Source: a virus
DNA length: 64,000 bases
Direction: 5' to 3' (one strand)
IMG/VR virus record: IMGVR_UViG_3300036398_004744
Location: 1-64,000 of that record
Shown: positions 30,425 to 48,073 of the stretch, piece by piece
Position numbering within the stretch: position 1 is the stretch's first letter
How the letters are laid out: each line of letters opens with the position of its first letter
Notes under the pieces: generated by a model
Seen by the model: the letters and a program-made list of their open reading frames with translations, nothing else
What the model was told of the DNA's origin: nothing
The model's database searches: none
Program-made: the position numbers and the translations under genes

Positions 30425-30452
30425 AGTCTACCATGGCTGGCAGCCAAGTAAA
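30425..30452 (-). promoter_or_regulatory. Early promoter A
   Basis: On the minus strand: TTTACT (30452-30447), a 16-base spacer containing TGGCTGCCAGCCA, TAGACT (30430-30425), then 10 bases to ATG 30414. The spacer carries a perfect odd palindrome (TGGCTG-G-CAGCCA in plus orientation). Confidence 0.65.
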
Positions 30453-30460
30453 CCCCAAAA

Positions 30461-30505
30461 AGCAAAAAAATGAAAAAAAAATAGGGGGCCCCGGAGGGCC
30501 CCCCT
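30461..30505 (-). terminator. Intrinsic terminator after the DUF932 gene
   Basis: On the minus strand an 8-bp perfect stem GGGGGCCC / GGGCCCCC with a TCCG loop is followed by TA and nine T. It ends the DUF932 unit and lies immediately before promoter A. Confidence 0.85.
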
Positions 30506-30524
30506 TGGCTGAGGTTTTCGTGGA

Positions 30525-31379
30525 TTATTCGGCGGCCAGCATCTCCTTGCGGAACTTCTGGAGGCCGTGGGTCCCGCCGGCGAGCAGGGCCTCGGCACCG
30601 GCCCAGAGGCGGCGGTTGACGAGGGTGTCCATGTGGAAGGACGTGACCCCGCGGCTGCGACGACCCAGGCGAGTCTCGATGCCGCCCTTGATGACGTTCT
30701 CCTGGACGCGGTTGAACACGGTCCAGAGGTCGTCGTGCTTGTCGACGTCGCGGCGGGCGACGAGAACGTCCTTGGCCTCGATGGGCATGTCGGCATAACC
30801 CTTGTAGCGGGCCTCGATCGCGAACTTGGCATACATGCTCTGCTCGATTTTGTTCAGCCTCCGCTCGCGGAAGGCCTCGACGCGGCCCTCGGACTCATCG
30901 AGCAGCTTGGCCATGTTGGCGATCATCAAGCGGACGGCCTCAGAATCGAGCGACACGTGGGTCGCGACGAAACTCGAGGCCATGCCCGAGGCGACGACCA
31001 TGCCGTTGCTGCAGACCAGGCGGTAGAAACCGGCCATGGCCGACAGACGGCGAGTGCGGTCGTGGCTGTTCTCGAGGATGACGCGCGGGGCGGACTCCAG
31101 CTTGCCCGACTGCAGCTTCTCGAGGTGGTTGCGGTGAAACAGCTCCACGCGGTGCTGCCCGGTGATCCCGGCCTCGCGGCGCTGGCGCGCATTGACCGGC
31201 ACGAAGCCGTGGTCGCGCAGGACCGGGAGGACCTCGGACGTGCTCACGAACGTGTAGCGCTCAGAGACGTCAGGGGCGGGTTTTTTCGCGAAGATCGCCG
31301 GGGCGAGTTCACGGAGGCGGGTGTCGTTCAGTTCTCCCAGGAGGACCTGGGCCGTAGTTGTGTTTGCAGTATTGCTCAT
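30525..31379 (-). CDS. DUF932 phage/plasmid-like protein (284 aa)
   Basis: From ATG 31379 the protein reads MSNTANTTTAQVLLGELND. It contains the DUF932 features: an early strand-helix (YTFVSTSEVLPVLRDHGF), HRVELFHR, and the block GFYRLVCSNGMVVASGMAS with a following HVS. The family is widespread on phages and plasmids and is of unknown biochemical role. A longer N-terminal reading is excluded by promoter B, whose -10 ends 10 bases before this ATG. It is a single-gene unit flanked by its own promoter and terminator, which suggests high or separately timed expression. Confidence 0.85.
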   Translation of the reverse strand: MSNTANTTTAQVLLGELNDTRLRELAPAIFAKKPAPDVSERYTFVSTSEVLPVLRDHGFVPVNARQRREAGITGQHRVELFHRNHLEKLQSGKLESAPRVILENSHDRTRRLSAMAGFYRLVCSNGMVVASGMASSFVATHVSLDSEAVRLMIANMAKLLDESEGRVEAFRERRLNKIEQSMYAKFAIEARYKGYADMPIEAKDVLVARRDVDKHDDLWTVFNRVQENVIKGGIETRLGRRSRGVTSFHMDTLVNRRLWAGAEALLAGGTHGLQKFRKEMLAAE

Positions 31380-31389
31380 AACGAGGGCT

Positions 31390-31418
31390 AATATAGCTGG
31401 CTGCCAGGCACGTGTAAA
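31390..31418 (-). promoter_or_regulatory. Early promoter B (best match)
   Basis: On the minus strand: TTTACA (31418-31413), a 17-base spacer containing the perfect palindrome CTGGCAGCCAG, TATATT (31395-31390), then 10 bases to ATG 31379. Closest to sigma-70 consensus of the set. A GC-rich hairpin without a U tract lies just upstream at the end of the helicase gene. Confidence 0.75.
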
Positions 31419-31464
31419 CCCCAGAATGAAACTTTTTTCAACTTTTTTCGGGGCCCTCGGAGGG

Positions 31465-33579
31465 CTACTTTTTGGCCCCCTCGGGGAAGATCGTGTAGGA
31501 CTTCTTGCCCCCGATTCGAACCGAGACCACCCCGCGGCCCTGGGCCTCGAGCTTGCCGAGCTGGATGCCAAACCACCTCGCCGAGTTGCGCCCGACGATG
31601 TTGCGCAGGCTGTCATAGAGGAAGATGTCCTGCATGAGAGCTGTCGCGGTTCCAGACCATGCCTCGTTCTCGCCGTTGCGAGATCTCTCAAGCATGAAGG
31701 CCGACAACACCTCGTCGAGGACCGCCGCGTCCGTGCTCTCGCCGGCCGCGAGCCGCAGTTCTGGATGGTGGTATCCACGGATCCCGTAGCGCGCCTGTTC
31801 TGAGATGCATTCCTCTGGCACATCGAATTCAACGAGCCACGCGGCAAGATAGGGAAGCTCTCTCGTGATCGTGTCCTGGAGGACGTGCCTCTCGGGAAAC
31901 ATCTTGTCGACGGTGGCGGCCCTGAAGAGCATGATCTTGTCGAGGATCGACGTGTCGAGATCAGGCAGGATGCGGAGCGACTCGGCATCGAGGTTTCCGG
32001 TGATGATCACGCGGCCAGTCCACTCGACCATGACCGAATCCTGGAACTTGGCATGGTATTCAAAGGTCGTGTTGGCCGTGACCTTCTTGAGCAGGCTCGA
32101 GAACTTCTTGTGGTCTGCCGAGCTGTCGCCGGGCGTCGCGTCGTCGACCGACCACAGGCCGTGATGGAACAGCTCCTTGTTGAACGAGGATGCTCCCAGA
32201 AGAAACTGGGTCGCGTCCTGGTGACCTCCGACCAGACCAGAGACGATCCTGTTGGACAGCAGGGTCTTGCCCTGCCCGGGCTCACCGGCGATGAACAGGG
32301 CCTGTCCCTGCTTCGGGGCCCCGTCGAGCGCCGAGCAGTAGAACCTCTTGAGCCACGACAGAAAATAGAGCAGCTGCTCGTCGTTGTCAAAGAACTTCTC
32401 AAGAAATCCACTGAGCCACGGGAAACGGTCTCCCCAGTCGGCGATCGATTCGGCCGGCCTGAGTGGCATGACCCTGGCCGTGTTGAGGACTCGCTTGCCC
32501 ATGAACTCGATCATGCCCGGCGGCAGGTAGACGAACGGGGCCGCTCCCACGACGCGCCTGTGCTGGTCGACCGTGAAGAGCGCGTGCTCGACTTCTGAAA
32601 AGGTCGCGTTCTTTTCTTTCTCGGCGGCCAGCCCCTGCTCGACCTTGAGCCAGCGACCCATCTCCCTCTCGGCACGCGCCTCCCACTTGCCGTCGGCCGA
32701 CTGATACCAGTAGTTCTTGCCGTCATACCAGACTCCGTCGATCACCTCGCTGAGCCTGCTCGACGTGAACTGCTCAACGAAGCGACTTCCGAAGATCTTC
32801 GACCACGGCACGAAGCCAGACGAGCCGGTGAAGCACTGCATCCCGGTCGGTCTGACGATCGCGGCAGTCGGGTTGTCTGCCATCGGGTCCCAGAACCGCA
32901 CTCCTCGAGATCCCTCAACAAACGGCCCGTTCCAGCGGCCGGGAAAGCGCTGGTGGAGCTCGTTCTCGAGCACGTCGAGCGGGATCGAGTCGCCGGTCCA
33001 CTTGACCGACTCGGATGACTTCAGCATCCAGCCCTCGACGACCGCGGCATCGAGAGGAGGGGCCCCATCGATCTCCATCCAGTCGCGGCCGACGTCGTAG
33101 TAGATGGTCGGGTTGAGAAAGGCCGAGTCAAAGTCAAAGCCGGGCAGGAGGCCACGCAGGTCAAGCGACTTGGCGGCCGCCCGGAGTGTCTTGATCAGGA
33201 CAGACCCAGACGCGACAAGGACTGGCCTGTCAAGGATCCACACCAGCCGGGCTCCCCCGGATGGCGTCCTGTGGGCCCAGGTCGGCGGAGTGGCATCGCA
33301 CCTGCCCAGCATTGACTCGAGGTCAGAAATGTCAATCTCGGAATCGTAGTCGGCCACCAGGGCGTGGATGGAATGGACCGGATTTGCGTCCTTGTGCAGC
33401 CGCAGGCTCGGGATGAGCCCCGTGAAGCCGCAATAGAGGCAGTGCTCGGTCGTGTCCTGGGCGAGCCATTCCTTGTAGAGCCGCTTGGTCTTGAACTTGG
33501 GCACCTCGGGAACAAACTCCCAGGGCCTGAGCATCTCCACGTCCTGCGTGACGAGATTCGTGATGCACGGGAACTTCAT
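31465..33579 (-). CDS. D5-like primase-helicase (704 aa)
   Basis: The N-terminal region has a primase-like acidic motif, ALVADYDSEID (Asp77, Asp79), followed by HRTPSGGARLVWIL, as in archaeo-eukaryotic-type primases with the PriCT or VirE-like fusion. The C-terminal region has a Walker A GEPGQGKT (432-439) and later blocks (LWSVDDATPGD, GRVIITGNLDAESL) of SF3/D5 helicases. A C-terminal winged-helix-like tail (GIQLGKLEAQGRGVVSV) is typical. Role: unwinding and primer synthesis at the phage fork. Its start overlaps the stop of the upstream gene. Confidence 0.85.
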   Translation of the reverse strand: MKFPCITNLVTQDVEMLRPWEFVPEVPKFKTKRLYKEWLAQDTTEHCLYCGFTGLIPSLRLHKDANPVHSIHALVADYDSEIDISDLESMLGRCDATPPTWAHRTPSGGARLVWILDRPVLVASGSVLIKTLRAAAKSLDLRGLLPGFDFDSAFLNPTIYYDVGRDWMEIDGAPPLDAAVVEGWMLKSSESVKWTGDSIPLDVLENELHQRFPGRWNGPFVEGSRGVRFWDPMADNPTAAIVRPTGMQCFTGSSGFVPWSKIFGSRFVEQFTSSRLSEVIDGVWYDGKNYWYQSADGKWEARAEREMGRWLKVEQGLAAEKEKNATFSEVEHALFTVDQHRRVVGAAPFVYLPPGMIEFMGKRVLNTARVMPLRPAESIADWGDRFPWLSGFLEKFFDNDEQLLYFLSWLKRFYCSALDGAPKQGQALFIAGEPGQGKTLLSNRIVSGLVGGHQDATQFLLGASSFNKELFHHGLWSVDDATPGDSSADHKKFSSLLKKVTANTTFEYHAKFQDSVMVEWTGRVIITGNLDAESLRILPDLDTSILDKIMLFRAATVDKMFPERHVLQDTITRELPYLAAWLVEFDVPEECISEQARYGIRGYHHPELRLAAGESTDAAVLDEVLSAFMLERSRNGENEAWSGTATALMQDIFLYDSLRNIVGRNSARWFGIQLGKLEAQGRGVVSVRIGGKKSYTIFPEGAKK

Positions 33580-34061
33580 ACTCCGACGCAGCCGATGGAG
33601 CGGTTGATGATGACATTGCTGAACTTCTCAAGTTCCTCGGTCGTGCAACCCATGGCATTGGGATGCCGGGCTTCCACGATGCGGGCTCCCAGAAACTGAT
33701 CATCCCAGAAAAACAGCGGCATCTCCTGTCGAAGCCGGTCAATGCCCGCGGCCGCGCGCCTTCCGAGAACCCCGATGGTCTTCGGGCGCTGCTCGAGAAT
33801 GACTCGCAGCATGTGCTCGTGGTCGGGATCTCCGGCGGCCCGGTGGTCGCCGAGCAGGGGCTGAGGATGGGCGTTGTCCCACCAGATGTCGTGAAACATC
33901 GGGCCGAACAGGCCAAGAAGGCGACGTCCGGTCATCGTCGTCGCGAGAAGTTCGCGGCGGAAGTGGACATCGTGTTGGTATGACTGCAGGATCTCTGGAT
34001 CTGTCTCAGGCGGAAACCATGGGTTCTGCAGGAAGATGACGGTGGTGTGGGCGAGGCTCAT
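33576..34061 (-). CDS. Hypothetical protein, possible uracil-DNA-glycosylase-like fold (161 aa)
   Basis: First gene of the unit behind promoter E. It begins with a strand ending NPWFPPETD and has a conserved-looking IWWDNAHPQPL and, near the end, EARHPNAMG. A strand with an NP loop early and an HP-type loop late is the general plan of the uracil-DNA glycosylase superfamily, but the canonical catalytic motifs are not clear. Treat this as a weak fold guess. It is coupled to the primase-helicase by an ATGA overlap, so a replication or repair role is plausible. Confidence 0.45.
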   Translation of the reverse strand: MSLAHTTVIFLQNPWFPPETDPEILQSYQHDVHFRRELLATTMTGRRLLGLFGPMFHDIWWDNAHPQPLLGDHRAAGDPDHEHMLRVILEQRPKTIGVLGRRAAAGIDRLRQEMPLFFWDDQFLGARIVEARHPNAMGCTTEELEKFSNVIINRSIGCVGV

Positions 34062-34071
34062 GACGGGCTCG

Positions 34072-34100
34072 ATTGTAGGTGGGCTGGCTGCTATTGTGAA
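34072..34100 (-). promoter_or_regulatory. Early promoter E
   Basis: On the minus strand: TTCACA (34100-34095), a 17-base spacer with GCAGCCAGCC, TACAAT (34077-34072), then 10 bases to ATG 34061. Confidence 0.65.
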
Positions 34101-34109
34101 ACGAGGATC

Positions 34110-34967
34110 TCACCGAGCGAGTTCTTTCCAGTTTTCTGACGACCCCCAGGGCTCGGCGACCTCGGAGAGATCCGGATACCGGCACTCATAGGACTCCACG
34201 AGCTCGGGATTCTTCCCAGAGTCGACGATCTCCCAGATGCAGTTGCGAGACTGTCGCGGGAACATCGGGGCAAAGATCGTGGCCAGGTAGTTGGTGTCGT
34301 AGTAGCCACGAAGACGCTCAAAGATCTCGCGCTGGGCCGGCGTGAATTCTTCCTTGTAGTCCTTGATCGAGGCAAACGTCCCATGAACGGCCTGGATCAT
34401 CCAGCCCTCGCGCTCGAAGACGGCCCCGAGAGTCTCGTGGCGCATCTCGTTGACGTGGTTGTCGGCGCAGGTCTTGACGTCCCAGCAGGGAGTCGAGATG
34501 AACGCGCGCCCGTCCTTTTTCAGCATCTCTCTGAACGAGTCGAGCATGCGGAGCATGTGCTCCGGCTCGACGTGCTCAAGGACCTCGAGACACACAATGA
34601 TGTCGACCTGGTTGGCAAACTCGTCGGTCGCGTCGCAGATGTCGGTCTTCTCGTATGCCTCGAGCGGAAACTTGCCCGAGTGGAACACCTCGATCGCCTC
34701 GTCAAGAATCGGTCCGACGTCGATCCCAATGTATCTCTTCGGGATGTAGCGCGAGCTGTAGAGCGTCTTCGCCATCGGAAGCTCACGGCCGCAGCCGACG
34801 TCGAGAATGGTCGCCTCGGCATACGCCTTGCCCTCTGACAGGCGGCGCATGATGTGACTCCACCTCAGACAGTGGGCGATGTAGTCGCGATGCAAGAATC
34901 CGCGTTTCTCGGCGGTGTCGAGCGACAAGAATGTCGTGTCTACGGTTTTTCCTCTTTTGTTTGCCAT
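34110..34967 (-). CDS. Class I SAM-dependent methyltransferase (285 aa)
   Basis: Motif I ATILDVGCGRELP (residues about 52-64), then YIGIDVG, DIIVCLEVLEHVEPEHML and a following LKKDGRAFISTPCW give a complete class I methyltransferase core. It lacks the DPPY or PC motif of a standard DNA base methylase, so the substrate may be a nucleotide, sugar, lipid or protein. It closes the nucleotide-metabolism operon directly after a thymidylate-synthase-like enzyme, which makes a role in base or nucleotide modification worth testing. Six bases separate it from that gene. Confidence 0.8.
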   Translation of the reverse strand: MANKRGKTVDTTFLSLDTAEKRGFLHRDYIAHCLRWSHIMRRLSEGKAYAEATILDVGCGRELPMAKTLYSSRYIPKRYIGIDVGPILDEAIEVFHSGKFPLEAYEKTDICDATDEFANQVDIIVCLEVLEHVEPEHMLRMLDSFREMLKKDGRAFISTPCWDVKTCADNHVNEMRHETLGAVFEREGWMIQAVHGTFASIKDYKEEFTPAQREIFERLRGYYDTNYLATIFAPMFPRQSRNCIWEIVDSGKNPELVESYECRYPDLSEVAEPWGSSENWKELAR

Positions 34968-34973
34968 GACGTT

Positions 34974-35831
34974 TTATTTTGTGGGTTGGTTGTTTGTGTT
35001 CAGGAGACGATCCTCGAAAGACTTGAAAAATCCATGAGGCTCGTTGAGATTCGGAGTGACGGAATACTCGCCGATGATCGCGGCGAGGTAGCCGTGGACA
35101 AAGCCGTGCTCGATCCGGTGGCCGGCGACGGCATCAAAGTCATGTCCCTCTGACCAGTCATGGTTGTGCCAGCCGGCCAGAGTCTCGAGATCCTTCTCAT
35201 AGATGTGGTGAGATCCGGCGTTGAGATGCAGGGTGCCGAGCTGGAGGTCCATGCCCTCATCGCGCAGCGCCTCGAGAATGTGCCACGACAGCATCGAGAA
35301 ATTGAAGACGTCATACGGAAACCCGAGCCAGACGTCGCTCGATCTCATCGTGTCGACGCAGTGGAGCAGTCCGTCACGGATCAGCCACTGGACGGCCACC
35401 GTGCAGGGCACGTCCTTCGTGTGGGGCGGATTCTCTCTCCAGATGGTGAGGACGGCCTGGCGCGTGTCGCGATCTCTCTTGAGCGTGTTCACGACGTATT
35501 CGACCTGCCGCGCGATCTTGGGTCCGTAGGCCCCAAAGAATGTCTCTCCGTCGTCGGAAAACTTCTTGATGGCCCGGCAGTATTTCCCGATCGATTCGAC
35601 GTCGCGGCGGCCGGCAAGAATCCACCAGGCCTCGGCCGCCATGAAGCGGTAGCTCAGCCGGCGCTTCTTTGTCAGAACGACCGGAAAGGCCATGTCGACT
35701 GCCACCGTGTTGTTGATGATCTCGCGGACCGGCATGCCGCGTGGACTGTATCGACGGCCGTTGAGAGACACGTCTGCGATGAGCTGGAGCCACGCCTCGG
35801 TGGCGGTCTTTGGGATCTTGTCGTTGTTCAT
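34974..35831 (-). CDS. Thymidylate synthase family enzyme, probably dCMP hydroxymethylase or methylase
   Basis: 285 residues with the family core: catalytic Cys143 in VPCTVAVQWLIRD, MRSSDVWLGFPYD (Arg163, Asp166) and HHIY (His209, Tyr211). The residue 31 positions after the catalytic Cys is Asp174. Thymidylate synthases have Asn there (N177 in E. coli), whereas T4 dCMP hydroxymethylase has Asp179, also 31 after its Cys148. This predicts dCMP rather than dUMP as substrate, giving 5-hydroxymethyl- or 5-methyl-dCMP. The surrounding MRSND-GF-ND of T4 aligns well. It lies between a nucleotide kinase and a methyltransferase. Ordinary thymidylate synthase remains possible. Confidence 0.8.
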   Translation of the reverse strand: MNNDKIPKTATEAWLQLIADVSLNGRRYSPRGMPVREIINNTVAVDMAFPVVLTKKRRLSYRFMAAEAWWILAGRRDVESIGKYCRAIKKFSDDGETFFGAYGPKIARQVEYVVNTLKRDRDTRQAVLTIWRENPPHTKDVPCTVAVQWLIRDGLLHCVDTMRSSDVWLGFPYDVFNFSMLSWHILEALRDEGMDLQLGTLHLNAGSHHIYEKDLETLAGWHNHDWSEGHDFDAVAGHRIEHGFVHGYLAAIIGEYSVTPNLNEPHGFFKSFEDRLLNTNNQPTK

Positions 35832-36514
35832 TTGATGAGATTCAGTTCGTTGAGAAGAAGCATGCGGTCGCGGACCAGGTCCTCGGCCTGCACGTTGAAG
35901 TCGGTGGCCTCAAGCATGGCCGAAGCGATGTCCTGAACGTCCTGGACGTGCATGGACATGTCATGAGACGTCTGTCCCATCTGTTCGTAGTCATAGAGGT
36001 GCGCCATCAGGGGACGGGCGTTGCCGAATCCACGTAGTGTCTCGCAGTGGCCGAGATTGGTCGTGGTGTGGTCGGTTCCGTGCCACCAGTCGAAATAGCC
36101 GCAGACCAGGTCGCGGTAGCGGTCGTCTGGCTCATACATCTCATGACGCTCTTCTCGAGAACGGCGCAGCGACTCGAACATCCGTTCGGGGCTCGAGAGC
36201 AGGCAGACGACGTAAGTGACCCCGAGGCACGACATGATCTGGTCAAGGCGGGCCGCCTCGGCAACGAGCGGAGATCCGCCACGGTAGGCGGCGGCATACA
36301 GCTGCTCCGAGGGCCAGTGTCTGTCGATCAGAACTGGCTTCTCGATTGACCAGTGGACTGCCAGGGCGAGAGACATCGCCTGATGCTCATACATTCTCCT
36401 GCGCAGCGGCAGATGCAGGTAGCGGGCCCCGGTCTGGCGCATGTATTCGTGTCCCCACGTCGTCTTGCCGACGGCATCGGGTCCCTCAAGGACAATGATC
36501 GGGTGGCGCTTCAT
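35828..36514 (-). CDS. Deoxynucleoside monophosphate kinase, thymidylate-kinase-like
   Basis: 228 residues. The N-terminal P-loop LEGPDAVGKTT (residues 9-19) matches the thymidylate kinase form, and LIDRHWPSEQLYA is the D-R-x-x-S block that positions the base. The protein would phosphorylate a dNMP to dNDP in the cytoplasm. Because it is ATGA-coupled to the thymidylate-synthase-like gene, a modified dCMP is a reasonable substrate guess. The C-terminal 60 residues are helical and less conserved. Confidence 0.8.
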   Translation of the reverse strand: MKRHPIIVLEGPDAVGKTTWGHEYMRQTGARYLHLPLRRRMYEHQAMSLALAVHWSIEKPVLIDRHWPSEQLYAAAYRGGSPLVAEAARLDQIMSCLGVTYVVCLLSSPERMFESLRRSREERHEMYEPDDRYRDLVCGYFDWWHGTDHTTTNLGHCETLRGFGNARPLMAHLYDYEQMGQTSHDMSMHVQDVQDIASAMLEATDFNVQAEDLVRDRMLLLNELNLIK

Positions 36515-37002
36515 AGGGTCTGGATCAGGCGCTTGGCGACGGTCCTGAGAACTGGCTGAAGAGAACTCGCGAACATCGCCGGCTTTCCGTCGAGCATTGG
36601 ATTGGGTGAGGAGAGATCGTCGAGATGCATGAAGACAAGGTAGTCGTGCTTGTCGGGCTCGACGTTGCGGGCGACGAGCTGGAGGTCACGGACGGCAACA
36701 GACCATACACCGATCACCCAGTCCAGACCATCTCCATTGTCATTGCGGTAGATCGTCTGAAACTCGACACGGAAGCAGTTGTCTGGCTCGATTGCCATCT
36801 CCTCGCGGAGCTCACGAAGAAGACCCTCCTCAAACGGCTCGCCGTGCTCAAGAAGTCCCGCCGGGGTCGACAGGCAGTTCTTGGCAGAGCGAACGCGGTC
36901 GCCGCGCCACATCATCGCCACCATCCGAGTGACCGGATCATAGGGCACGGCCATGACCGTGAAGTGCGGCAGCGGGTCTGGAAGTGATCTTGGCTCGGTC
37001 AT
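36511..37002 (-). CDS. Nudix hydrolase (163 aa)
   Basis: A perfect Nudix box GX5EX7REUXEE runs from Gly49 to Glu68 (GLLEHGEPFEEGLLRELREE). The domain would hydrolyse a nucleoside diphosphate linked to another moiety, or a (d)NTP, with metal bound by the box glutamates. In this operon it may sanitise the dNTP pool or remove unmodified or damaged nucleotides. It overlaps both neighbours by four bases. Confidence 0.85.
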   Translation of the reverse strand: MTEPRSLPDPLPHFTVMAVPYDPVTRMVAMMWRGDRVRSAKNCLSTPAGLLEHGEPFEEGLLRELREEMAIEPDNCFRVEFQTIYRNDNGDGLDWVIGVWSVAVRDLQLVARNVEPDKHDYLVFMHLDDLSSPNPMLDGKPAMFASSLQPVLRTVAKRLIQTL

Positions 37003-37181
37003 GACTGGGCCCTCTTCTCAAGGTAGTGGTCGGCCGCCTCGATCGCGAGATCGATGGCCTTGGTTGGGTTGACGCTGATCTTGCCCGACAGGATTCCGGC
37101 GGCGCAGAACATGACAAGCACGTCGCGCATGTTGACCTCGTCGATGTCGGGTGACTTCTTGGTGTTGTGGTTTGGGTTCAT
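36999..37181 (-). CDS. Small hypothetical protein (60 aa)
   Basis: Read from ATG 37181 (MNPNHNTKKSPDID), which overlaps the polymerase stop. Mostly helical (MRDVLVMFCAAGILSGK, AIDLAIEAADHYLEKR). Small proteins with this helix pattern are common in phage replication operons. No function can be given. Confidence 0.55.
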   Translation of the reverse strand: MNPNHNTKKSPDIDEVNMRDVLVMFCAAGILSGKISVNPTKAIDLAIEAADHYLEKRAQS

Positions 37182-39657: not shown

Positions 39658-39706
39658 GAGCTGCCGGGCGCGCCACTGCAAAGAGGACGCCCGGTCACCC
39701 AAATGT

Positions 39707-40666: not shown

Positions 40667-40667
40667 T

Positions 40668-40949: not shown

Positions 40950-42109
40950 GATTTTTTCCCCCTGCTCAGTTGTGCATAGCGCACTCTGGCGCCGTGCTGG
41001 ATTAGTCCGGTCTCGTGGAGCCGGTCGACCGCGAGCGACTGCATGCCGCCCTTTTCCCCGGTCTTTGCGTGCTGGCCGACAAGCTGCTTGATCTTCGTGA
41101 CCGAGACATCGCATGCCGACAAGAACTCGTCAAACGTGACGCCAAATTCAGACTCCAGGAGCTTCGCCGTGGCGATCGGATCGACGATCGAGGTGTCGCC
41201 AGATTTCTCGACGATCGTGACTCCCTCGGACAGTCGACCCGCGTCGTGAACTGCGAGCACAAAGCGCTTGAACTTCTTGAGATAGTCCTCCATGGGCTTC
41301 ACCCAGCGAAACGCCCTGACGACCTCCTCAGGATCGGCGGTCTCTGGCGACTCAAGACTCGTGAGAGGCACGATCTCGTGGCCAAACAGGTCTGCGTCGT
41401 TGGCGAGCTTGACCATGTAGCTCTGCCACGCCGAGCAGCTGGCCTGGCGGGCACAGAAGCCGCAGATGTCTGGATGCGGACGGAGCATGTCGTTGTCCTG
41501 TGTCTCCAGCCACCGATGCCGGCGACGGACGATGGCGCCGACCTGCGACACGATCACCTCGTAGTCCTTCTTGCGGGTGAAGAGATGCGTGTCGTCGACC
41601 TTCAGGGCGGGCTGAATCAGGCGGACTCGGATCTTTTCGATGGTCGGAAACAGGATGAACAGGCCGAGGGCATAGGCCCTGAACTGAATGTTCTCTGAGA
41701 CGTGGTCGACCTCCCAGCGGCCAAACTTAAAGTCGATCAGCTCGACTGAGACCGGCTCATGATCGGCATCGGCCTCGAGCACGATCACGCGGTCGGCGTG
41801 CCCCTTGTCGAAGTCACGGAACTTGAGGGGTCGAAAGTCGAGCTCGACCTCCTTGAGGGGCTCATAGGGTGACTGACTCTCGGCGTCGGCGAGCAGGGCG
41901 AGTGTCTGTTCTGCGACCTCGCGGTCCTCGTCTGGCAGCGTGGCAGGAATCTTGCCGGTGTCCATGACCTCGTGTAGCGTGGTTCCGCGAGCGGCTGCCG
42001 CAGACGGCGTGTCGTCGGACTCGTAGCCAGGACAGATCTGCAGCGGTTTCAGCCTTGACGGGCTGATCCGCGAGTGGCCTCGTGACGTGTGATCAACCTG
42101 GGAGTTCAT
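40946..42109 (-). CDS. Cas4-like / DUF2800 PD-(D/E)XK nuclease (387 aa)
   Basis: RGTTLHEVMD gives the early His45, KGHADRVIV gives Asp106, and ELIDFKFG gives the D-x-K catalytic pair (Asp126, Lys128), followed by NIQFRAYALG. The cysteines in HPDICGFCARQASC, with Cys26 upstream, could hold an iron-sulfur cluster as in Cas4 and AddB-type nucleases. Expected activity: single-strand exonuclease or end processing in recombination. The start overlaps the dCMP deaminase end by 17 bases. Confidence 0.82.
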   Translation of the reverse strand: MNSQVDHTSRGHSRISPSRLKPLQICPGYESDDTPSAAAARGTTLHEVMDTGKIPATLPDEDREVAEQTLALLADAESQSPYEPLKEVELDFRPLKFRDFDKGHADRVIVLEADADHEPVSVELIDFKFGRWEVDHVSENIQFRAYALGLFILFPTIEKIRVRLIQPALKVDDTHLFTRKKDYEVIVSQVGAIVRRRHRWLETQDNDMLRPHPDICGFCARQASCSAWQSYMVKLANDADLFGHEIVPLTSLESPETADPEEVVRAFRWVKPMEDYLKKFKRFVLAVHDAGRLSEGVTIVEKSGDTSIVDPIATAKLLESEFGVTFDEFLSACDVSVTKIKQLVGQHAKTGEKGGMQSLAVDRLHETGLIQHGARVRYAQLSRGKKS

Positions 42110-42569
42110 GGGAATCGACGAGGCGAGCGATGTAGCTCTTGATGTGGATGAGTGGCATGTGGATCAGTTCGACGCCGTATTCGTCAAGGATCTCCATGCC
42201 GGCGACGTCGCGCGGATAGGTCAGACCGTAGACGACACGCCTGACACCGTGCGCGATGAGATTGAGGGCGCAGGGGCCGCACGGGATCGTCGTGCAGGCG
42301 ACGGTCCTGACGGCGCCGCGGTGAGTCAGACTGCAGAGATTGGATTCCGCGTGCACGACAAACTTGCGGCGCTGCTCGTTGTTCTGCCACCAGTCGTCGC
42401 TGACGTCCCAGCCAGATGGGAGTCCGTTGTAGGCTGTGGCAATGACGCGGTTCTCATGGTCGAGCGCGACGGCTCCGACCTTGCGACTGGGATCCTCGGA
42501 ACGGAGCGCGGCGGCGGAGGCAAGAAGCATCGCGTATTCGTCGATGGTGGGTCTAAGATGTGGGCTCAT
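42093..42569 (-). CDS. dCMP deaminase (158 aa)
   Basis: Zinc-binding deaminase motifs HAE (73-75) and PCGPC (Cys97, Cys100), with the N-terminal YAMLLASAAALRSEDPSRKV typical of dCMP deaminases of the ComE type. It converts dCMP to dUMP, supplying dTTP synthesis and controlling the dCMP pool used by the thymidylate-synthase-like enzyme of the same operon. ATG 42569 is chosen because promoter C ends 10 bases before it. First gene of the largest early transcription unit. Confidence 0.88.
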   Translation of the reverse strand: MSPHLRPTIDEYAMLLASAAALRSEDPSRKVGAVALDHENRVIATAYNGLPSGWDVSDDWWQNNEQRRKFVVHAESNLCSLTHRGAVRTVACTTIPCGPCALNLIAHGVRRVVYGLTYPRDVAGMEILDEYGVELIHMPLIHIKSYIARLVDSHELPG

Positions 42570-42579
42570 GACGGTGTGA

Positions 42580-42607
42580 AGATTATCGTGGCTGGCTGCC
42601 AAGTAAA
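42580..42607 (-). promoter_or_regulatory. Early promoter C
   Basis: On the minus strand: TTTACT (42607-42602), a 16-base spacer with TGGCAGCCAGCCA, TAATCT (42585-42580), then 10 bases to ATG 42569. An inverted repeat TTTTCTG-TG-CAGAAAA lies just before it and may end the upstream unit. Confidence 0.65.
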
Positions 42608-42636
42608 TGCATATTTTCTGTGCAGAAAACTTTTCA

Positions 42637-43182
42637 TCACTCGCAGGAATAGATCTCGCTCTGCAGGCGAAGCCGCGGCACTCCCCGAGACGCATCGGTG
42701 AAGCTGCGGTCCTCAAAGAGAACGCGGTTCGTCGGCTGAATCGTGAGGCGGTCGTTGTCGAGCCAGATGAACATGAATTCCTTCGCCTGGTCGGGCGCGT
42801 CGGAAAATCCGTCGCCGATCGGGACTGCCGTGAAGAGATACGTGCCCGGATGATCTTCTCCCTTGATGATGGCATCGCACCTGAGGCCACGGAGATAGGT
42901 GTATTCGGTCGCGTGCCAGTCGTATCCGTAGCAGTCCCACAGCTCGGCGTCGTCGATCTCCCAGTCGGTCTCGGGATTCTCGCTGAACGCGATCGCGTGC
43001 GGGGGCACCGATCTGTAGACGGCGCCCGACTCGAACACGACGTTGCAGCCCCAGGCACGACCCGGGATCGAGACGAGACCGAACCAGACGGCGGGCACGA
43101 AGCCGCACGGCTCCTCGTGGGTGAACCTCGAGTCGACCCAGACATACTGGTGACGCGGCAGTGATCCGATCTGGCAGTTCAT
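42637..43182 (-). CDS. Hypothetical protein, all-beta (181 aa)
   Basis: ATG 43182 (MNCQIGSLPRH) overlaps the upstream stop. The sequence is Trp- and Tyr-rich with acidic loops (WEIDDAELWDCYGYDWHATE, EFMFIWLDNDRLTI). It looks like a compact beta domain. Not recognised. Last gene of the chain that begins at promoter D. Confidence 0.6.
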   Translation of the reverse strand: MNCQIGSLPRHQYVWVDSRFTHEEPCGFVPAVWFGLVSIPGRAWGCNVVFESGAVYRSVPPHAIAFSENPETDWEIDDAELWDCYGYDWHATEYTYLRGLRCDAIIKGEDHPGTYLFTAVPIGDGFSDAPDQAKEFMFIWLDNDRLTIQPTNRVLFEDRSFTDASRGVPRLRLQSEIYSCE

Positions 43183-43370
43183 GGAGTCTCTGGATGAAGC
43201 TGCCACTCTGTCTGCGACGGAGGAACCGGTCTGCTGCACAGTGGACAGAGACTGAGATCAGGCTCTGGACGATGGCGAGATCCGAGATGCAGGATCGCGA
43301 GCGACACGGCGGCGGCCCAGAACAGGCACAGCGCGGCCAGAACGGCATTGAGACTGAATCCCCGCATCAT
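43179..43370 (-). CDS. Small membrane protein with CxxC (63 aa)
   Basis: One transmembrane segment (VLAALCLFWAAAVSLAIL), then a short soluble part with CPLC. Two ATGs (43370 and 43367) are possible. Coupled by four-base overlaps to both neighbours. Function unknown; the CxxC could bind metal. Confidence 0.5.
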   Translation of the reverse strand: MMRGFSLNAVLAALCLFWAAAVSLAILHLGSRHRPEPDLSLCPLCSRPVPPSQTEWQLHPETP

Positions 43371-43567
43371 GACACCATCCTCCGCAGTGCCTGCCTGACC
43401 GTGAGGTCACGCAGGTGTTCCATGGCCGCATGGCGTGTCGGAAACACGCGGTCTCCAAGCATCCAGCGTCTCTCGTGTTCGCAATAGTTGAATCCCGCGG
43501 CATGAAGCCTTGGGCACTCACTGGCCCTGTCGAGCCAGCCAACGATTCGATCAATCATTTTTTTCAT
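43367..43567 (-). CDS. Small hypothetical protein (66 aa)
   Basis: A charged helical protein: MKKMIDRIVGWLDRASECP, then WMLGDRVFPTRHAAMEHLRD. It overlaps the helicase stop upstream and the membrane gene downstream by four bases each. No family recognised. Confidence 0.5.
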   Translation of the reverse strand: MKKMIDRIVGWLDRASECPRLHAAGFNYCEHERRWMLGDRVFPTRHAAMEHLRDLTVRQALRRMVS

Positions 43568-44925
43568 ATCATTCCCTCCATGTTGAGTTCACCGTCTGTC
43601 AGCAAGGAAAGATTCTCGAGTCGGCGCTCCACGGCCCTGGCTATCTTCGACTCGATGCCAGTCGACGAGTAGACGATGCGCTGGACGACGGGACTCTTTG
43701 CGCCAGACCGGACCGCCCGACCAAGGACCTGGATGAGGGTCACGGCCTTGTAGGTCGGAAACACGATCACATGGCGAGGTCTCGACCCGTGCGTGTCGTG
43801 AAGATCGATCGATTCAGACCCGGCATCGACCTGGCAGACCAGGACCCTGACCAGGCCAGACTGGAAATCATGCACGGCCGCCTCCTGGTCGCGCCGAGAC
43901 CTCTTGCCGTCGAGCACCCTGTGGTCAATCGTGCCGAGACGCTCGGAGATGACCTGGATCGTCCTGGTGAACTGGACAAACACGATGACGGATTCGCCCT
44001 CCTCGTGCCGGTCCTCAATCTCCTCGATCAGGGCCGGGACCTTGAAGAGCTCGGCGCGCTGCCGATCTCGGATCGCGAGAATGCCGGGACTGGGATTTCC
44101 CTCGTGTCGCTCCACGTCGGCCTGCTCGTCGTCGTCGACCAGACTGAGCCAGGGTCCGAGCCAGGACGGCGGGGAATCTGGAAGATCCCACAGCTCGACC
44201 GTGGTCTGGGCCTCGGGGAACTGTCCGGCCTCAAAGAGATCTTTCTTGCGGAGACGGAGTCCCCAGCAGTCGGGACCGTCAAAGAGAGTCCGGTGGATGT
44301 CGCCGAGCACTCGGTCACGGTCTCCCTTGCGAAAGTAGAGGCCTCCGAACGGACTGCGCACGCAGCCGTTCCTGCGGCACCAGTTCCAGAAGTCGTTGTC
44401 GAGACGATGCATGCCGGTGCAGAAGCCGAGGGCTCGCATCTTGAGAGGCGAGTCTGCCGGAGTCGCAGAGAGGCCGAGCACGAGAACGTTCGGATTTCGC
44501 TGCGCCGCGATGACGAGCTCGGCGTTCTGGCTCTTGAGACCTCCGCCGGCGTGGATCTCGTCGATGATGAGGATCATCGGATGGGGCATGACAAAATTGA
44601 AGGCGCGGACGCGGCCGAGTCGGTTGCGGATCGGGATGAAGTCCTCGTTGCGGCCGCCGCGGGCCTTTTCCCAGCTCATGACAAACTCTGGCACGATGCC
44701 GAATTGCCCGAGGGCGACCTTCCACTTTGTGATGGCGCGGGCGCGGCAGATCACGGCGATCCGCGGAATGTGCCCGTCCTGGTCTTCGAACTCGAGTGCC
44801 GTGGCAATGGCCGTGAAGGTCTTGCCGATGCCGGTGTCAGAGGCATCAAGGGCAAAACCCCTCTCAGAAAGAATCTCCGAGAGTCGGCGGGCAGCCTCCT
44901 GCTGGTATGGGCGGAACTCGGCCAT
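43564..44925 (-). CDS. SF2 (SNF2-like) helicase (453 aa)
   Basis: From ATG 44925 (MAEFRPYQQEAARRL). Walker A SDTGIGKTFTA (residues 29-39), motif II IIDEIH (Asp122-His125), motif III LGLSATP, and C-terminal motifs (VIVFVQFTRTIQVI, DLHDTHGSRPRHVIVFP, QVLGRAVRSG) of the recombinase-type helicase fold. The DEIH box and 450-residue size match phage DNA repair or replication helicases. The long upstream in-frame extension is Arg-rich and overlaps two other genes, so it is rejected. Confidence 0.87.
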   Translation of the reverse strand: MAEFRPYQQEAARRLSEILSERGFALDASDTGIGKTFTAIATALEFEDQDGHIPRIAVICRARAITKWKVALGQFGIVPEFVMSWEKARGGRNEDFIPIRNRLGRVRAFNFVMPHPMILIIDEIHAGGGLKSQNAELVIAAQRNPNVLVLGLSATPADSPLKMRALGFCTGMHRLDNDFWNWCRRNGCVRSPFGGLYFRKGDRDRVLGDIHRTLFDGPDCWGLRLRKKDLFEAGQFPEAQTTVELWDLPDSPPSWLGPWLSLVDDDEQADVERHEGNPSPGILAIRDRQRAELFKVPALIEEIEDRHEEGESVIVFVQFTRTIQVISERLGTIDHRVLDGKRSRRDQEAAVHDFQSGLVRVLVCQVDAGSESIDLHDTHGSRPRHVIVFPTYKAVTLIQVLGRAVRSGAKSPVVQRIVYSSTGIESKIARAVERRLENLSLLTDGELNMEGMI

Positions 44926-44927
44926 GG

Positions 44928-45086
44928 TCAGATGTTGCTCCAGTCGTGGCCGCAGCAGCGGTCGGCGTCGTGCTCGAGACGCTTCTCTTCCTCCCACTCG
45001 GCGTCCTCCTCTGGCGTGCGTCGCGGGCGGCTGCCACGGCATGGGATCTCGTCTGGCAGTCTCTGGGTGTCTTCGGGCGTGCTCAT
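44928..45086 (-). CDS. Small acidic Cys-containing protein (52 aa)
   Basis: ATG 45086 overlaps the upstream stop; the stop is two bases before the helicase start. Sequence features: RRTPEEDAEWEEEKRLEHD, then DRCCGHDW. Too short for family recognition, but the coupling on both sides supports a real gene. Confidence 0.5.
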   Translation of the reverse strand: MSTPEDTQRLPDEIPCRGSRPRRTPEEDAEWEEEKRLEHDADRCCGHDWSNI

Positions 45087-45337
45087 TGTTTCGTGGGATC
45101 GAGCATCTCGTGGATGCGGTCGTTGACAAACTCGACGCAGCCGCGGGCGAGCTCGCCCTGCAGCATCGCGCCATGCGACAATCCGACCATGAAGGCCAGA
45201 TGGAGCGCCGAGTCCATGTGGTCAGACATGTCCTCGGTGTGGTGCGCAAACAGCGTGTCACGGTAGCTCTCCCACGCCTCGGTCGGACTGAGAGTGAAAG
45301 TGCCGATGAACTTGGGATGTGGCTTGGAATCGCTCAT
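45083..45337 (-). CDS. Small hypothetical protein (84 aa)
   Basis: MSDSKPHPKFIGTFTLSP is followed by His-rich helices (LFAHHTEDMSDHMDSALHLA). ATGA overlaps upstream and downstream. No function recognised. Confidence 0.5.
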   Translation of the reverse strand: MSDSKPHPKFIGTFTLSPTEAWESYRDTLFAHHTEDMSDHMDSALHLAFMVGLSHGAMLQGELARGCVEFVNDRIHEMLDPTKQ

Positions 45338-45594
45338 GACTGGCTCCGGTTCTGTCGTATCCTGCGGAGAAAGGCATTGACACTCTTGTGAGTCCTGAAG
45401 AACATCGTGTTCTTCTTTGCGTCGGAGTCGCTGAGTCCGAGCCGGTGGACTGCCCAGGCAGGACGTCCGATGTCCTCCTCGCAGTGGTCACGGTCAAAGA
45501 GATAGCCATCCTGATTGATAAACTTTCTGGCAATGTAGCCGGCCTCCTCGTCGATGAGAACCTCGAGGCAGGGTGTGGTGTCGGTGGTGGTCAT
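45334..45594 (-). CDS. Small hypothetical protein (86 aa)
   Basis: ATG 45594 (MTTTDTTPCLEVLID) overlaps the stop of the gene before it. Alpha/beta composition with an acidic centre and a basic end (FFRTHKSVNAFLRRIRQNRS). A longer upstream reading would run through the neighbour out of frame. Not recognised. Confidence 0.5.
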   Translation of the reverse strand: MTTTDTTPCLEVLIDEEAGYIARKFINQDGYLFDRDHCEEDIGRPAWAVHRLGLSDSDAKKNTMFFRTHKSVNAFLRRIRQNRSQS

Positions 45595-46094
45595 GGCCTG
45601 CTGAGGATCGGGATCTCCGAGTTGGGGCTGATGCGCTCGATGCGAGGACGACCGAGCACGCTGCGCGTGTCGCCGTCTCTGGTCGTGATCTCGCGTGGCT
45701 GGCGAGGCAACTCGAGGTCTGCCGAGCAGTCGCTGACGCGGACGACACGAGCGCGGATTCCGTAGTAGTCGACCAGGTCTCCCTCGCGGAGCCGCGTGTT
45801 GAGTGGCACGACTCGCACGCGGTTCATCTCGAGCAGACTCGGGCGGTCTGACTCGGACGGAGCCGGCGGAGGAGGCAGCCTGTCGATCAGCGGCACGGTC
45901 TTTTTGCAAGAACTGGCTCGCAGGACACCGGTCGCGCCGGCATCGAAGATGCGACGATACATGCGACGTCCTCTGACCATCACGATCGGCAGGTTATACT
46001 TGTCTGACCAGTCGACGTAGGTCGCTGGCGTGAATTCTCCGTTGATCTTGACTGCACACGGAGAGCCTGTGGTTATTGCGGGTTTTTGACTCAT
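45591..46094 (-). CDS. Hypothetical early protein (167 aa)
   Basis: First gene after promoter D. The N-terminal part is beta-like (SPCAVKINGEFTPATYVDWS), then a Pro-rich linker, then another small beta domain (RLREGDLVDYYGIRARVVRV) that resembles an SH3- or KOW-like barrel. No enzyme motif. It may bind nucleic acid or protein. Start at 46094 is set by the promoter, which lies 10 bases upstream. Confidence 0.55.
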   Translation of the reverse strand: MSQKPAITTGSPCAVKINGEFTPATYVDWSDKYNLPIVMVRGRRMYRRIFDAGATGVLRASSCKKTVPLIDRLPPPPAPSESDRPSLLEMNRVRVVPLNTRLREGDLVDYYGIRARVVRVSDCSADLELPRQPREITTRDGDTRSVLGRPRIERISPNSEIPILSRP

Positions 46095-46104
46095 GACAGA
46101 GAGG

Positions 46105-46133
46105 ATACTACCAAGCTGCCAGCCACATGCGAA
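46105..46133 (-). promoter_or_regulatory. Early promoter D
   Basis: On the minus strand: TTCGCA (46133-46128), a 17-base spacer with TGGCTGGCAGC, TAGTAT (46110-46105), then 10 bases to ATG 46094. It follows directly after a terminator. Confidence 0.6.
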
Positions 46134-46146
46134 TCTTTTTTTTTTC

Positions 46147-46211
46147 AAAAAAATTTTGGCCGGGGAGGGAGGGATCGAAGCCCACGACGATCAGAACTCC
46201 CTCTCCCGGCA
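46147..46211 (-). terminator. Intrinsic terminator with large loop
   Basis: On the minus strand a 13-bp stem with one bulge (GCCGGG and GAGGGAG pairing with CTCCCTC and CCCGGC) encloses a 25-base loop with an inner GATCG/CGATC pair, followed by AAAA and seven T. It ends the unit that starts at 46857. The 3' arm also looks like the T-arm and acceptor end of a tRNA. Confidence 0.75.
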
Positions 46212-46221
46212 CGGGTCGGCC

Positions 46222-46470
46222 TCACTTCTTCCTCTTGTCTCTCGGTGACGCGGGGTCCTTTCGCCGGTCCGAGCTCTTGCGAGTCTTTCCCCAGCGAGCC
46301 TCGGCCCCGCGTATTCCTCCGAGTCGACGTCCGGGATGTCCTGCGCCGACCAATCCTCCGATGCGGCCTCGAATCGATGCCATCTCGACGACGGTGAATT
46401 TTCCCTTCTGCAGAACGGCGCGCAGGCGCGCGACCTCTGCCTCTCGTTCCTTGTCAGTCATGATGGCCAT
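46222..46470 (-). CDS. Small basic protein (82 aa)
   Basis: MAIMTDKEREAEVARLRAVL forms a helix; the rest is Gly/Arg/Lys-rich (GIRGAEARWGKTRKSSDRRK). A GGAG eight bases upstream supports ATG 46470. Strong positive charge suggests nucleic-acid binding. It is followed by the terminator at 46147-46211. Confidence 0.55.
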   Translation of the reverse strand: MAIMTDKEREAEVARLRAVLQKGKFTVVEMASIRGRIGGLVGAGHPGRRLGGIRGAEARWGKTRKSSDRRKDPASPRDKRKK

Positions 46471-46565
46471 TTGTTGTTCTCCTTCTCTCTGAATGCGAGC
46501 CAGCCGCCGAAGAGCAAAAGTCCTGCCCAGGAAACGACGAGTCCGATCACCGCAAAGACACGCAT
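46458..46565 (-). CDS. Tiny membrane protein (35 aa)
   Basis: MRVFAVIGLVVSWAGLLLFG followed by GWLAFREKENN. One transmembrane segment with the positive end inside. It begins one base after the previous stop and overlaps the next gene by 13 bases. Such microproteins are common in phage early arms, but the call rests only on packing and hydrophobicity. Confidence 0.4.
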   Translation of the reverse strand: MRVFAVIGLVVSWAGLLLFGGWLAFREKENNKWPS

Positions 46566-46566
46566 G

Positions 46567-46857
46567 TCAGTCGTCCTTCATTCCGTCGTCGAACCACGAG
46601 ACGACGAGAGCATCGATGGTCTCGGAAGAGACGAGGAGCAGCATGTAGTCGCGGATCTGGGTGAACGTGGTGAGGTCACGCATCTGAGAACGGAGACGGC
46701 GCTTGGCCGCCTCGTCCTCGAAGGTGTCGATGAATGTCCGAACGAGACTGCGTGTCCGGTGATTGTAGGGGGACTTCATGACTCCGCGATCAACTGGGGG
46801 AGCGTCGGGAATCTGGTCGGCCGTCACTGGGCCCTTCTGTGGTTGTGTCTTTTTCAT
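46567..46857 (-). CDS. Small hypothetical early protein (96 aa)
   Basis: Start at ATG 46857 (MKKTQPQKGP) fits promoter F. The C-terminal half is helical (HRTRSLVRTFIDTFEDEAAK, FTQIRDYMLLLVSSETIDAL) and ends acidic. No family recognised. Confidence 0.55.
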   Translation of the reverse strand: MKKTQPQKGPVTADQIPDAPPVDRGVMKSPYNHRTRSLVRTFIDTFEDEAAKRRLRSQMRDLTTFTQIRDYMLLLVSSETIDALVVSWFDDGMKDD

Positions 46858-46867
46858 GACAGGCTGC

Positions 46868-46896
46868 CATTTAATCCGCAACTTCTGCGATGTAAA
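46868..46896 (-). promoter_or_regulatory. Early promoter F
   Basis: On the minus strand: TTTACA (46896-46891), a 17-base spacer, TAAATG (46873-46868), then 10 bases to ATG 46857. Here GGCAGCC lies in the leader instead of the spacer. The spacer holds one copy of a 13-base direct repeat. Confidence 0.5.
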
Positions 46897-46922
46897 CAAG
46901 AAGACTGCTAACTTCTGCGATG
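46880..46922. repeat. Two direct copies of a 13-base repeat
   Basis: AACTTCTGCGATG occurs at 46880-46892 and again at 46910-46922, 30 bases apart, about three helical turns. One copy lies inside promoter F, so a regulator could bind both and control that unit. Confidence 0.6.
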
Positions 46923-47675
46923 AATTGCCACGCAGAACTTGTCAGGTTCGGGAAACTCGACTGTCGAGACCGAGTAGAGATGGCGGTCGTCAGACTCGCG
47001 TAGCGCGATGGCCTGGCAGCGTCGCTCAAGCTCCTTGAGTGAAAGGCCGCGCGAGAGCGGGTCAAGAAGCACCGAGTCGCCGGCGCGAAGAGAGCGCATC
47101 TGTCGGTGATTGATTCCAGAGACATGGGATCGGTCGTGCAGGTTCTCAGAAGATCTGGCCCAACTGACGTCATCAGACCGGCCCTCGAGAATGCAGTCGA
47201 TGTCGCGGCAGAAGTCGACGGCGCCGGGAAGCCGAAGGATGTCGGAGCGGTCAGAATCCCACTGTCCCCGATTCTCCCTGATGAGCTCAAGAAGTCCTCG
47301 AAGCGGGACCTGTCCGATCATCGCGAGGATGAACGGAACGATGAATCGGTCGTGCGAATCCTCTATCGCCGGGCAGTCGCGTTCGGAGGCGGCGCGGAGA
47401 GCCAGGACTCGCTCGTCCTGCTGTCTGATCCAGGAGACTCCGAACATGGCGGCCATGGTGGCCTGCCAGTTGAGCCGGGCAGACGACCAGAACTGTCGAA
47501 GCCAGCGACGGGCCGTGTCGTGGACGAGCGAATCGGGAGTGCTGGTGAAGAAAAGGAGGACCATGTAGGCCATGGCGCGTGAGGGACGGGCTCGTCGCCA
47601 GACGTGGCTGGAGTTGCGGAGAGTGCGGCCGGTCATGGGGAAGTGGACGGTGATGTGGTCAGATGGAGTCTTCAT
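46908..47675 (-). CDS. Hypothetical first early protein (255 aa)
   Basis: The first gene leftward of the divergent control region. N-terminal part is basic and aromatic (SSHVWRRARPSRAMAYMVLL); a helical centre (SLVHDTARRWLRQFWSSARL) leads to a C-terminal stretch (LDPLSRGLSLKELERRCQAI, RHLYSVSTVEFPEPDKFCVA). It encodes no motif that I recognise. Being first and alone behind promoter G, it could be an early regulator or host-takeover protein. Stop TAG at 46908. Confidence 0.6.
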   Translation of the reverse strand: MKTPSDHITVHFPMTGRTLRNSSHVWRRARPSRAMAYMVLLFFTSTPDSLVHDTARRWLRQFWSSARLNWQATMAAMFGVSWIRQQDERVLALRAASERDCPAIEDSHDRFIVPFILAMIGQVPLRGLLELIRENRGQWDSDRSDILRLPGAVDFCRDIDCILEGRSDDVSWARSSENLHDRSHVSGINHRQMRSLRAGDSVLLDPLSRGLSLKELERRCQAIALRESDDRHLYSVSTVEFPEPDKFCVAIHRRS

Positions 47676-47689
47676 GGTGTCAGAGAAGC

Positions 47690-47718
47690 ATCATAGCGCG
47701 GAATGGCAGGTGCCAGAA
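47690..47718 (-). promoter_or_regulatory. Early promoter G
   Basis: On the minus strand: TTCTGG (47718-47713), a 17-base spacer, TATGAT (47695-47690), then 14 bases to ATG 47675. TGGCA-CC-TGCCA, an inverted repeat, spans the -35 end and spacer. Confidence 0.5.
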
Positions 47719-48001: not shown

Positions 48002-48073
48002 ATGCCCGAGATTGTCTCCAAAGAAACTCCAGGTGTGCCTCGATGGCATTCTGATGTAGCATCCGAGCCATGA
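48002..48073 (+). CDS. Possible 23-residue leader ORF
   Basis: ATG 48002 opens MPEIVSKETPGVPRWHSDVA and ends with a TGA that overlaps the ATG of the resolvase gene in the ATGA arrangement used throughout this genome. No Shine-Dalgarno is obvious. It may be a leader peptide or a real microprotein; coupling is the only support. Confidence 0.35.
   Translation: MPEIVSKETPGVPRWHSDVASEP

What the first reader, a model, noticed from the sequence alone, without database searches (positions are those of the whole stretch)
30425..47718. A promoter regulon that seems to make near-leaderless early mRNAs
Seven minus-strand promoters (30425, 31390, 34072, 42580, 46105, 46868, 47690) lie in the breaks between overlapping gene chains. 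In six of seven the -10 hexamer ends exactly 10 bases before the ATG, with no Shine-Dalgarno between. RNA start 6-8 bases after a -10 would leave a 2-4 base leader. The first gene of each unit would then be read from a nearly leaderless mRNA while later genes depend on ATGA coupling. Two late promoters (14540, 16183) share the same 10-base distance. This is a striking fixed geometry for a whole early arm.
Basis: partly seen in the sequence, partly recalled or inferred. Interest (0 to 1): 0.8.

Follow-up and report, generated by a model that had tools for sequence, protein, structure and literature searches.

The report
Phage regulon of near-leaderless early mRNAs
This uncultured phage and its relatives start their early gene units from matching promoters that place the start codon about three bases from the predicted RNA end, with a shared switch-like DNA site inside most of them, so one regulator may control a whole set of messages that lack a normal ribosome-binding leader.

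Summary
The core observation is real and stronger than reported. Six of the seven early promoters (30425, 31390, 34072, 42580, 46105, 46868) have a -10 ending exactly 10 nt before the ATG and no Shine-Dalgarno. The seventh (47690) and the two late sites do not hold up. A weight matrix built only from relatives ranks the six 1-5 and 7 among 2103 ATGs. Across 22 promoters in six records (61-68% DNA-polymerase identity to the window), the -35 starts 38 or 39 nt before the ATG every time, and G(-3), T(-2) and A(+4) are invariant (GTC/GTT-ATGA).

Best explanation: host RNA polymerase starts at G(-3), giving 5'-GUC-AUG-A mRNAs with a 3-nt leader, and a regulator, most likely a phage repressor, binds the spacer element. 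Neither RNA ends nor regulator has been shown. Leaderless phage genes and promoter operators are known separately; I found no report of a clade-wide regulon combining both with a fixed initiation context. The host is unknown.

The parts
30425..30452 (-). Promoter 1: -35 TTTACT (30452-30447), spacer TGGCTGCCAGCCATGG with operator (30446-30434), -10 TAGACT (30430-30425); predicted start G at 30417; ATG at 30414 (DUF2786 protein, 29692-30414)
   Evidence: same promoter in near relatives and in G006
31390..31418 (-). Promoter 2: TTTACA, 17 nt with CTGGCAGCCAG palindrome, TATATT; predicted start G at 31382; ATG at 31379 (DUF932 protein, 30525-31379)
   Evidence: conserved in G006 (51% protein identity)
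34072..34100 (-). Promoter 3: TTCACA, 17 nt with AGCAGCCAGCC, TACAAT; predicted start G at 34064; ATG at 34061 (161-aa protein of unknown function)
42580..42607 (-). Promoter 4: TTTACT, 16 nt with TGGCAGCCAGCCA, TAATCT; predicted start G at 42572; ATG at 42569 (dCMP deaminase, 42093-42569)
   Evidence: a promoter of the same kind heads the deaminase gene in G006 and G015
46105..46133 (-). Promoter 5: TTCGCA, 17 nt with TGGCTGGCAGC, TAGTAT; predicted start G at 46097; ATG at 46094 (167-aa protein)
46868..46896 (-). Promoter 6: TTTACA, 17 nt with CGCAGAAGTTGCG, weak -10 TAAATG; a TGGCAGCC copy lies between -10 and ATG; predicted start G at 46860; ATG at 46857 (96-aa protein)
   Evidence: in G004/G008/G010 the spacer carries GTGGCAGCCAC instead
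30483..30504 (-). Terminator-like hairpin (9 pairs, then T9) between the DUF932 gene and promoter 1, separating two units
47690..47718 (-).
   Evidence: no operator, -10-like hexamer not kept in relatives, not among the top matrix hits

Best explanation
The early arm of this uncultured phage is expressed as several separate units. Each begins at a sigma-70-type promoter (TTTACW, 16-17 nt, TANNNT) read by host RNA polymerase. RNA starts at the invariant G three bases before the ATG, giving 5'-GUC(U)-AUG-A with a 3-nt leader that cannot hold a Shine-Dalgarno. The first gene is translated by leaderless-type initiation, and many following genes by ATGA stop-start coupling. One regulator, most likely a phage-encoded repressor, binds the GCAG-centred element inside the spacer and shuts the set off, or holds it off, together. 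Shown by sequence: fixed geometry, start context, conservation, repeated spacer element. Inferred: the RNA start, translation from the near-terminal AUG, the repressor, and the early timing.
For: A matrix trained only on relatives ranks the six promoters 1-5 and 7 of 2103 ATGs. In 22 promoters from six records the -35 start is 38 or 39 nt from the ATG; T(-16) 21/22, A(-15) 18/22, G(-3) and T(-2) 22/22, C(-1) 20/22, A(+4) 22/22, against GT in 9/95 and A(+4) in 35/95 for other genes with gaps of at least 40 nt. Picked by -35/-10 geometry alone, 20 of 23 heads still have GTC/GTT. G(-3) lies 7-8 nt after the -10 and follows a pyrimidine in 21/22, the usual place for a start (general knowledge). 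GCAG/CTGC is in 18/22 spacers against 2.2 expected; the window element at up to 2 mismatches falls in these promoters in 10 of 11 strand-hits. Its position in the spacer varies, which suits a repressor better than an activator. ATGs are true starts: homology begins at residue 1 and changes just after the ATG are synonymous or in-frame. In G004 a different gene follows promoter 1 at the same distance. TANNNT about 10 bp before starts is the published in-silico mark of leaderless genes (PMC3160421).
Against: No RNA data. The -10 sits about 4 bp further from the ATG than the leaderless peak reported for bacteria (first T about 12 bp upstream, PMC3160421), so near-leaderless, not leaderless. In mycobacteria an RTG at the very 5' end was found necessary (PMC4633059); how 3-nt leaders work in this unknown host is open. 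No repressor gene was found in the window: no helix-turn-helix family in the early proteins scanned, and fold searches on two candidates were empty. Four of 22 spacers lack GCAG. The 22 promoters were partly chosen by eye and some records are close relatives.
Confidence: 0.72

Rival explanations
1. The short -10 to ATG distance is simply how this host's promoters work: the host uses many leaderless genes, and the phage promoters are ordinary host-type promoters without a regulon of their own.
For: Leaderless genes exceed 20% in Actinobacteria and Deinococcus-Thermus (PMC3160421). Many window genes lack a clear SD.
Against: Other phage genes with upstream gaps lack this geometry (91 of 114). 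The spacer element and the GTC/GTT-ATGA context are specific to this set. The set is absent from phages with related polymerases at 46% identity or less.
Confidence: 0.15
2. The spacer element is the site of an activator or of a host regulator sensing the cell state (in the way LexA boxes lie inside SOS promoters), not of a phage repressor.
For: Spacer operators occur with host regulators; the pattern scan itself returned many prophage contigs with a CTGTATATAAATACAG element, which looks like a LexA box, inside a similar promoter.
Against: The element drifts between relatives (GCAGCCAG, GCAGTYAG, GCAGAAGTT, CTGCCATC) as expected of a phage-encoded partner. Its position shifts within the spacer, which an activator would not tolerate easily.
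Confidence: 0.25
3. The GTC/GTT-ATGA block is a second protein-binding or RNA-processing site and the real RNA start lies elsewhere; the short leader is a by-product.
For: G(-3), T(-2) and A(+4) are more conserved than most -10 positions.
Against: G(-3) lies at the normal distance from the -10, so no other start is needed.
Confidence: 0.12
4. Chance or gene-calling artefact.
For: The two late sites and 47690 are of this kind.
Against: Shuffles give 0.2 against 6, and the held-out matrix recovers all six.
Confidence: 0.02

Closest known systems
Leaderless ('TA-led') genes of bacteria (PMC3160421; review PMC9031893)
   Same: TANNNT a few bases before the start codon and no Shine-Dalgarno
   Different: Here the -10 is about 4 bp further away (predicted 3-nt leader), the genes form one phage set, and a GTC/GTT-ATGA context is invariant; in mycobacteria no sequence beyond the start codon was enriched (PMC4633059)
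Leaderless repressor mRNAs of temperate phages (lambda cI; PY54 cI and cro, PMC4488713)
   Same: Phage promoters abutting the start codon, with operators nearby
   Different: Those are one or two regulator genes; here at least six unit heads, including nucleotide-metabolism genes
Cluster O mycobacteriophages such as Corndog (PMC4351075)
   Same: Several sigma-70-type promoters, some predicted leaderless, and a repeated dyad element
   Different: Three of the eight or nine Corndog promoters are described as leaderless and most copies of the 17-bp repeat are away from promoters; here the element sits inside them
Start-Associated Sequences (SAS/ESAS) of Cluster K mycobacteriophages (PMC3203893)
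   Same: A repeated, oriented motif at fixed short distance from start codons of non-structural genes across related phages, some with inverted repeats upstream
   Different: SAS holds an AGGAG Shine-Dalgarno core; here there is none and promoter elements fill the region
Repressor operators repeated in phage genomes (Cluster A stoperators, PMC9283540, PMC6550527) and LexA boxes in promoters
   Same: One short element repeated in several promoters
   Different: No cognate protein found here; in the window the close matches (up to 2 mismatches) lie almost only in the promoters, and the element varies between relatives

Membership tests
Leaderless (TA-led) genes | TANNNT about 10-12 bp before the start codon at operon heads | tested here: met
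   Hexamer ends 10 nt before the ATG in the six; first T at -16 in 21 of 22, about 4 bp further than the reported peak
Leaderless (TA-led) genes | No Shine-Dalgarno | tested here: met
   No SD-like match longer than 4 bases before the six starts; AGGT at 30414 lies just after the -10
Leaderless (TA-led) genes | RNA begins at the start codon | tested here: inconclusive
   Predicted start is G(-3), a 3-nt leader; not measured
Sigma-70-type promoters | -35 and -10 hexamers about 16-18 nt apart | tested here: met
   16 or 17 nt in the six window promoters
Repressor-operator regulon | Common operator in several promoters of one genome | tested here: met
   TGGCTGSCAGCCA-like element in five spacers and a variant in the sixth
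Repressor-operator regulon | Cognate DNA-binding protein | tested here: inconclusive
   No helix-turn-helix family in the window early proteins scanned; G015 has a weak HTH protein heading one unit, without homologs in the other members searched
Repressor-operator regulon | Binding and repression | not testable with these tools
   needs binding and reporter assays
Cluster K Start-Associated Sequences | GGGATAGGAGCCC-like motif with Shine-Dalgarno core 3-7 bp before starts | tested here: not met
   No AGGAG core before the six starts

The most novel reading that the evidence does not exclude
The 5'-terminal sequence GUCAUGAG is itself a dedicated signal: a phage clade gives all messages of one regulon an almost identical near-leaderless 5' end, so that a phage factor or an altered ribosome can favour or shut off these messages as a class, on top of transcriptional control through the spacer element.
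Probability: 0.2. Interest if true: 0.85.

Novelty: new variant of a known kind. Interest (0 to 1): 0.6.

Why it matters
Leaderless translation in phages is known mainly from single regulator genes. A whole early regulon built this way, kept with one-base precision while the proteins diverge to about half identity, suggests that near-leaderless starts are under selection. It gives a natural set of messages with one fixed 5' end for testing how short leaders are read, and a sequence tag for finding units of the same regulon in uncultured phages. If a repressor binds the spacer element, the differing elements among relatives could also define immunity groups.

Tried and rejected
Late promoters 14540 and 16183 and early 47690 were rejected by comparison with relatives. 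A further late candidate found by the pattern scan (27687) could not be tested because no relative held has the gene. Host assignment failed: no DNA match in phage records; protein matches there were distant and spread over many hosts or absent; two scans of bacterial and archaeal genomes found no relative. Candidate regulators at 46222-46470 and 46567-46857 were folded with shallow alignments (pLDDT 75.8 and 77.5); Foldseek against the PDB gave nothing below E = 1. A collection-wide pattern scan found the clade's own members plus apparently unrelated contigs, mostly one prophage gene with a LexA-like box. An activator of the MerR type was considered and set aside because the spacers are 16-17 nt, not about 19 (general knowledge of MerR promoters).

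Full report
What the window is. The window is 64 kb of a 66,573-bp uncultured phage record. Structural and packaging genes lie on the plus strand. The minus-strand arm from 29.7 to 47.7 kb carries replication and nucleotide genes: a primase-like protein, thymidylate synthase, a DNA polymerase, an exonuclease, dCMP deaminase and a helicase. No match exists in the phage record collection at DNA level and no host could be assigned.

The observation. For six of the seven, exactly 10 nt lie between hexamer and ATG. The spacers are 16 or 17 nt. No Shine-Dalgarno precedes these starts. Random sequence of the same dinucleotide content gives 0.2 such sites against 6, and none with GTY-ATGA against 5. 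Promoter 46868 has a weak -10 (TAAATG), but relatives keep the same sequence. Promoter 47690 and the late sites do not stand.

Are the ATGs real starts? In relatives, homology begins at the first residues. Between window and near relatives the dCMP deaminase gene changes AGC CCA CAT CTT AGA to AGT ATC CAT CTT CGC, partly synonymous, directly after the ATG; the 30414 gene differs by an in-frame insertion. In G004 a different gene has been placed directly behind promoter 1 with the same 10-nt distance (loci L004 and L180), so promoter and start context move as one block.

Conservation. Scans with the DNA polymerase found relatives at 61-68% identity: G006, G012, G013, G014, G015 and G016. With gene calls made the same way for all, their operon heads show the same promoter: for example G015 1363, 8511, 20141, 21098, 22160 and 62323, G006 16882, 22625, 26236, 38712 and 39694, G014 11471 and 13674, G016 5830 and 18256. 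In 22 such promoters the -35 start is 38 or 39 nt from the ATG without exception. G(-3), T(-2) and A(+4) are invariant, C(-1) is 20/22, G(+5) is 19/22. This set was partly picked by eye, so two checks were made. Choosing by -35/-10 geometry alone still gives GTC/GTT at 20 of 23 heads. A matrix trained without the window puts the six window promoters at ranks 1-5 and 7 of 2103 ATGs. The full matrix also found members outside its training set: G012 21287 with G013 4840 and G014 1634, G015 16036, and L135 6110, scoring 23-33. The best score in 446 kb of unrelated loci was 9.0, and phages with polymerases at 46% identity or less had no comparable hit. The feature is therefore specific to one clade.

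The spacer element. Five window spacers carry TGGCTGSCAGCCA-like sequence, the sixth GCAGAAGTTGCG. With up to two mismatches, 10 of 11 strand-hits in the whole record fall at these promoters. Across the 22 promoters GCAG/CTGC is in 18 spacers against 2.2 expected, with variants by phage: GCAGCCAG in the window, GCAGTYAG in G006, GCAGAAGTY and CTGCCATC in G015. At promoter 46868 near relatives carry either GCAGAAGTTGCG or GTGGCAGCCAC at the same place, as if one operator type had been exchanged for another. The distance from the -35 to the element differs between promoters. This is what an RNA-polymerase-blocking repressor tolerates and an activator usually does not.

Mechanism. The G at -3 sits 7-8 nt after the -10 and follows a pyrimidine in 21 of 22, which is where RNA polymerase normally starts (general knowledge). 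The predicted mRNA is 5'-GUC AUG AGC. Published surveys take TANNNT about 10 bp before the start codon as the mark of leaderless genes, peaking near 12 bp for its first T (PMC3160421); here it is 16, hence 'near-leaderless'. Reviews define leaderless initiation as 70S ribosomes binding an AUG at or near the 5' end (PMC9031893).

What is new. Single leaderless phage genes, promoters with internal operators, and repeated start-associated motifs are all known (PMC4488713, PMC4351075, PMC3203893). The combination in one clade-wide regulon with an invariant GTC/GTT-ATGA context was not found in the papers searched (seven completed searches of an open-access library, so absence is weak evidence). 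The novelty class is a new variant of a known kind.

Limits. No RNA, protein or binding data exist here. The regulator is unidentified; one weak HTH protein heads a unit in G015 but has no homolog in the other members searched. The near relatives are not independent of each other, and 'early' is inferred from gene content.

Noticed in passing
46857-46896 (minus): The spacer of this promoter carries CGCAGAAGTTGCG in the window and some relatives but GTGGCAGCCAC in G004, G008 and G010; a further CGCAGAAGTT copy lies just upstream. Possible operator (immunity-type) exchange.
   Followed up: partly
42614-42629 (minus): Palindrome TTTTCTGCACAGAAAA directly upstream of promoter 42580, kept as TTTTCTGCGCAGAAAA in relatives; it contains the same CTGC/CAGAA words as the other operator type.
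   Followed up: no
L116:2323-2682 (G015 62323-62682): 119-aa protein with weak RepB/HTH_6 hits heads its own unit with the regulon promoter; candidate autoregulated regulator.
   Followed up: partly
45591-46094 (minus): Only the first ~49 residues of this 167-aa protein are shared with larger proteins with weak AAA-ATPase hits in G013, G014 and G015, which also have the regulon promoter; the rest of the protein differs.
   Followed up: no
47840-48010: AT-rich non-coding stretch in the divergent region between the early arm and the packaging genes, with several promoter-like sites on both strands; candidate first promoters or replication origin.
   Followed up: no
58944-60152 (plus): 402-aa protein, 77-86% identical among the clade, the most conserved of all the genes compared, yet without a match in Pfam, PHROGs or phage records; possibly the major capsid protein.
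   Followed up: partly
L004 after position 6852 (G004): A different ~108-aa gene (MSTQNTQTGTG...) stands directly behind promoter 1 in this relative at the same 10-nt distance, with the usual DUF2786 gene further on and without this promoter.
   Followed up: partly
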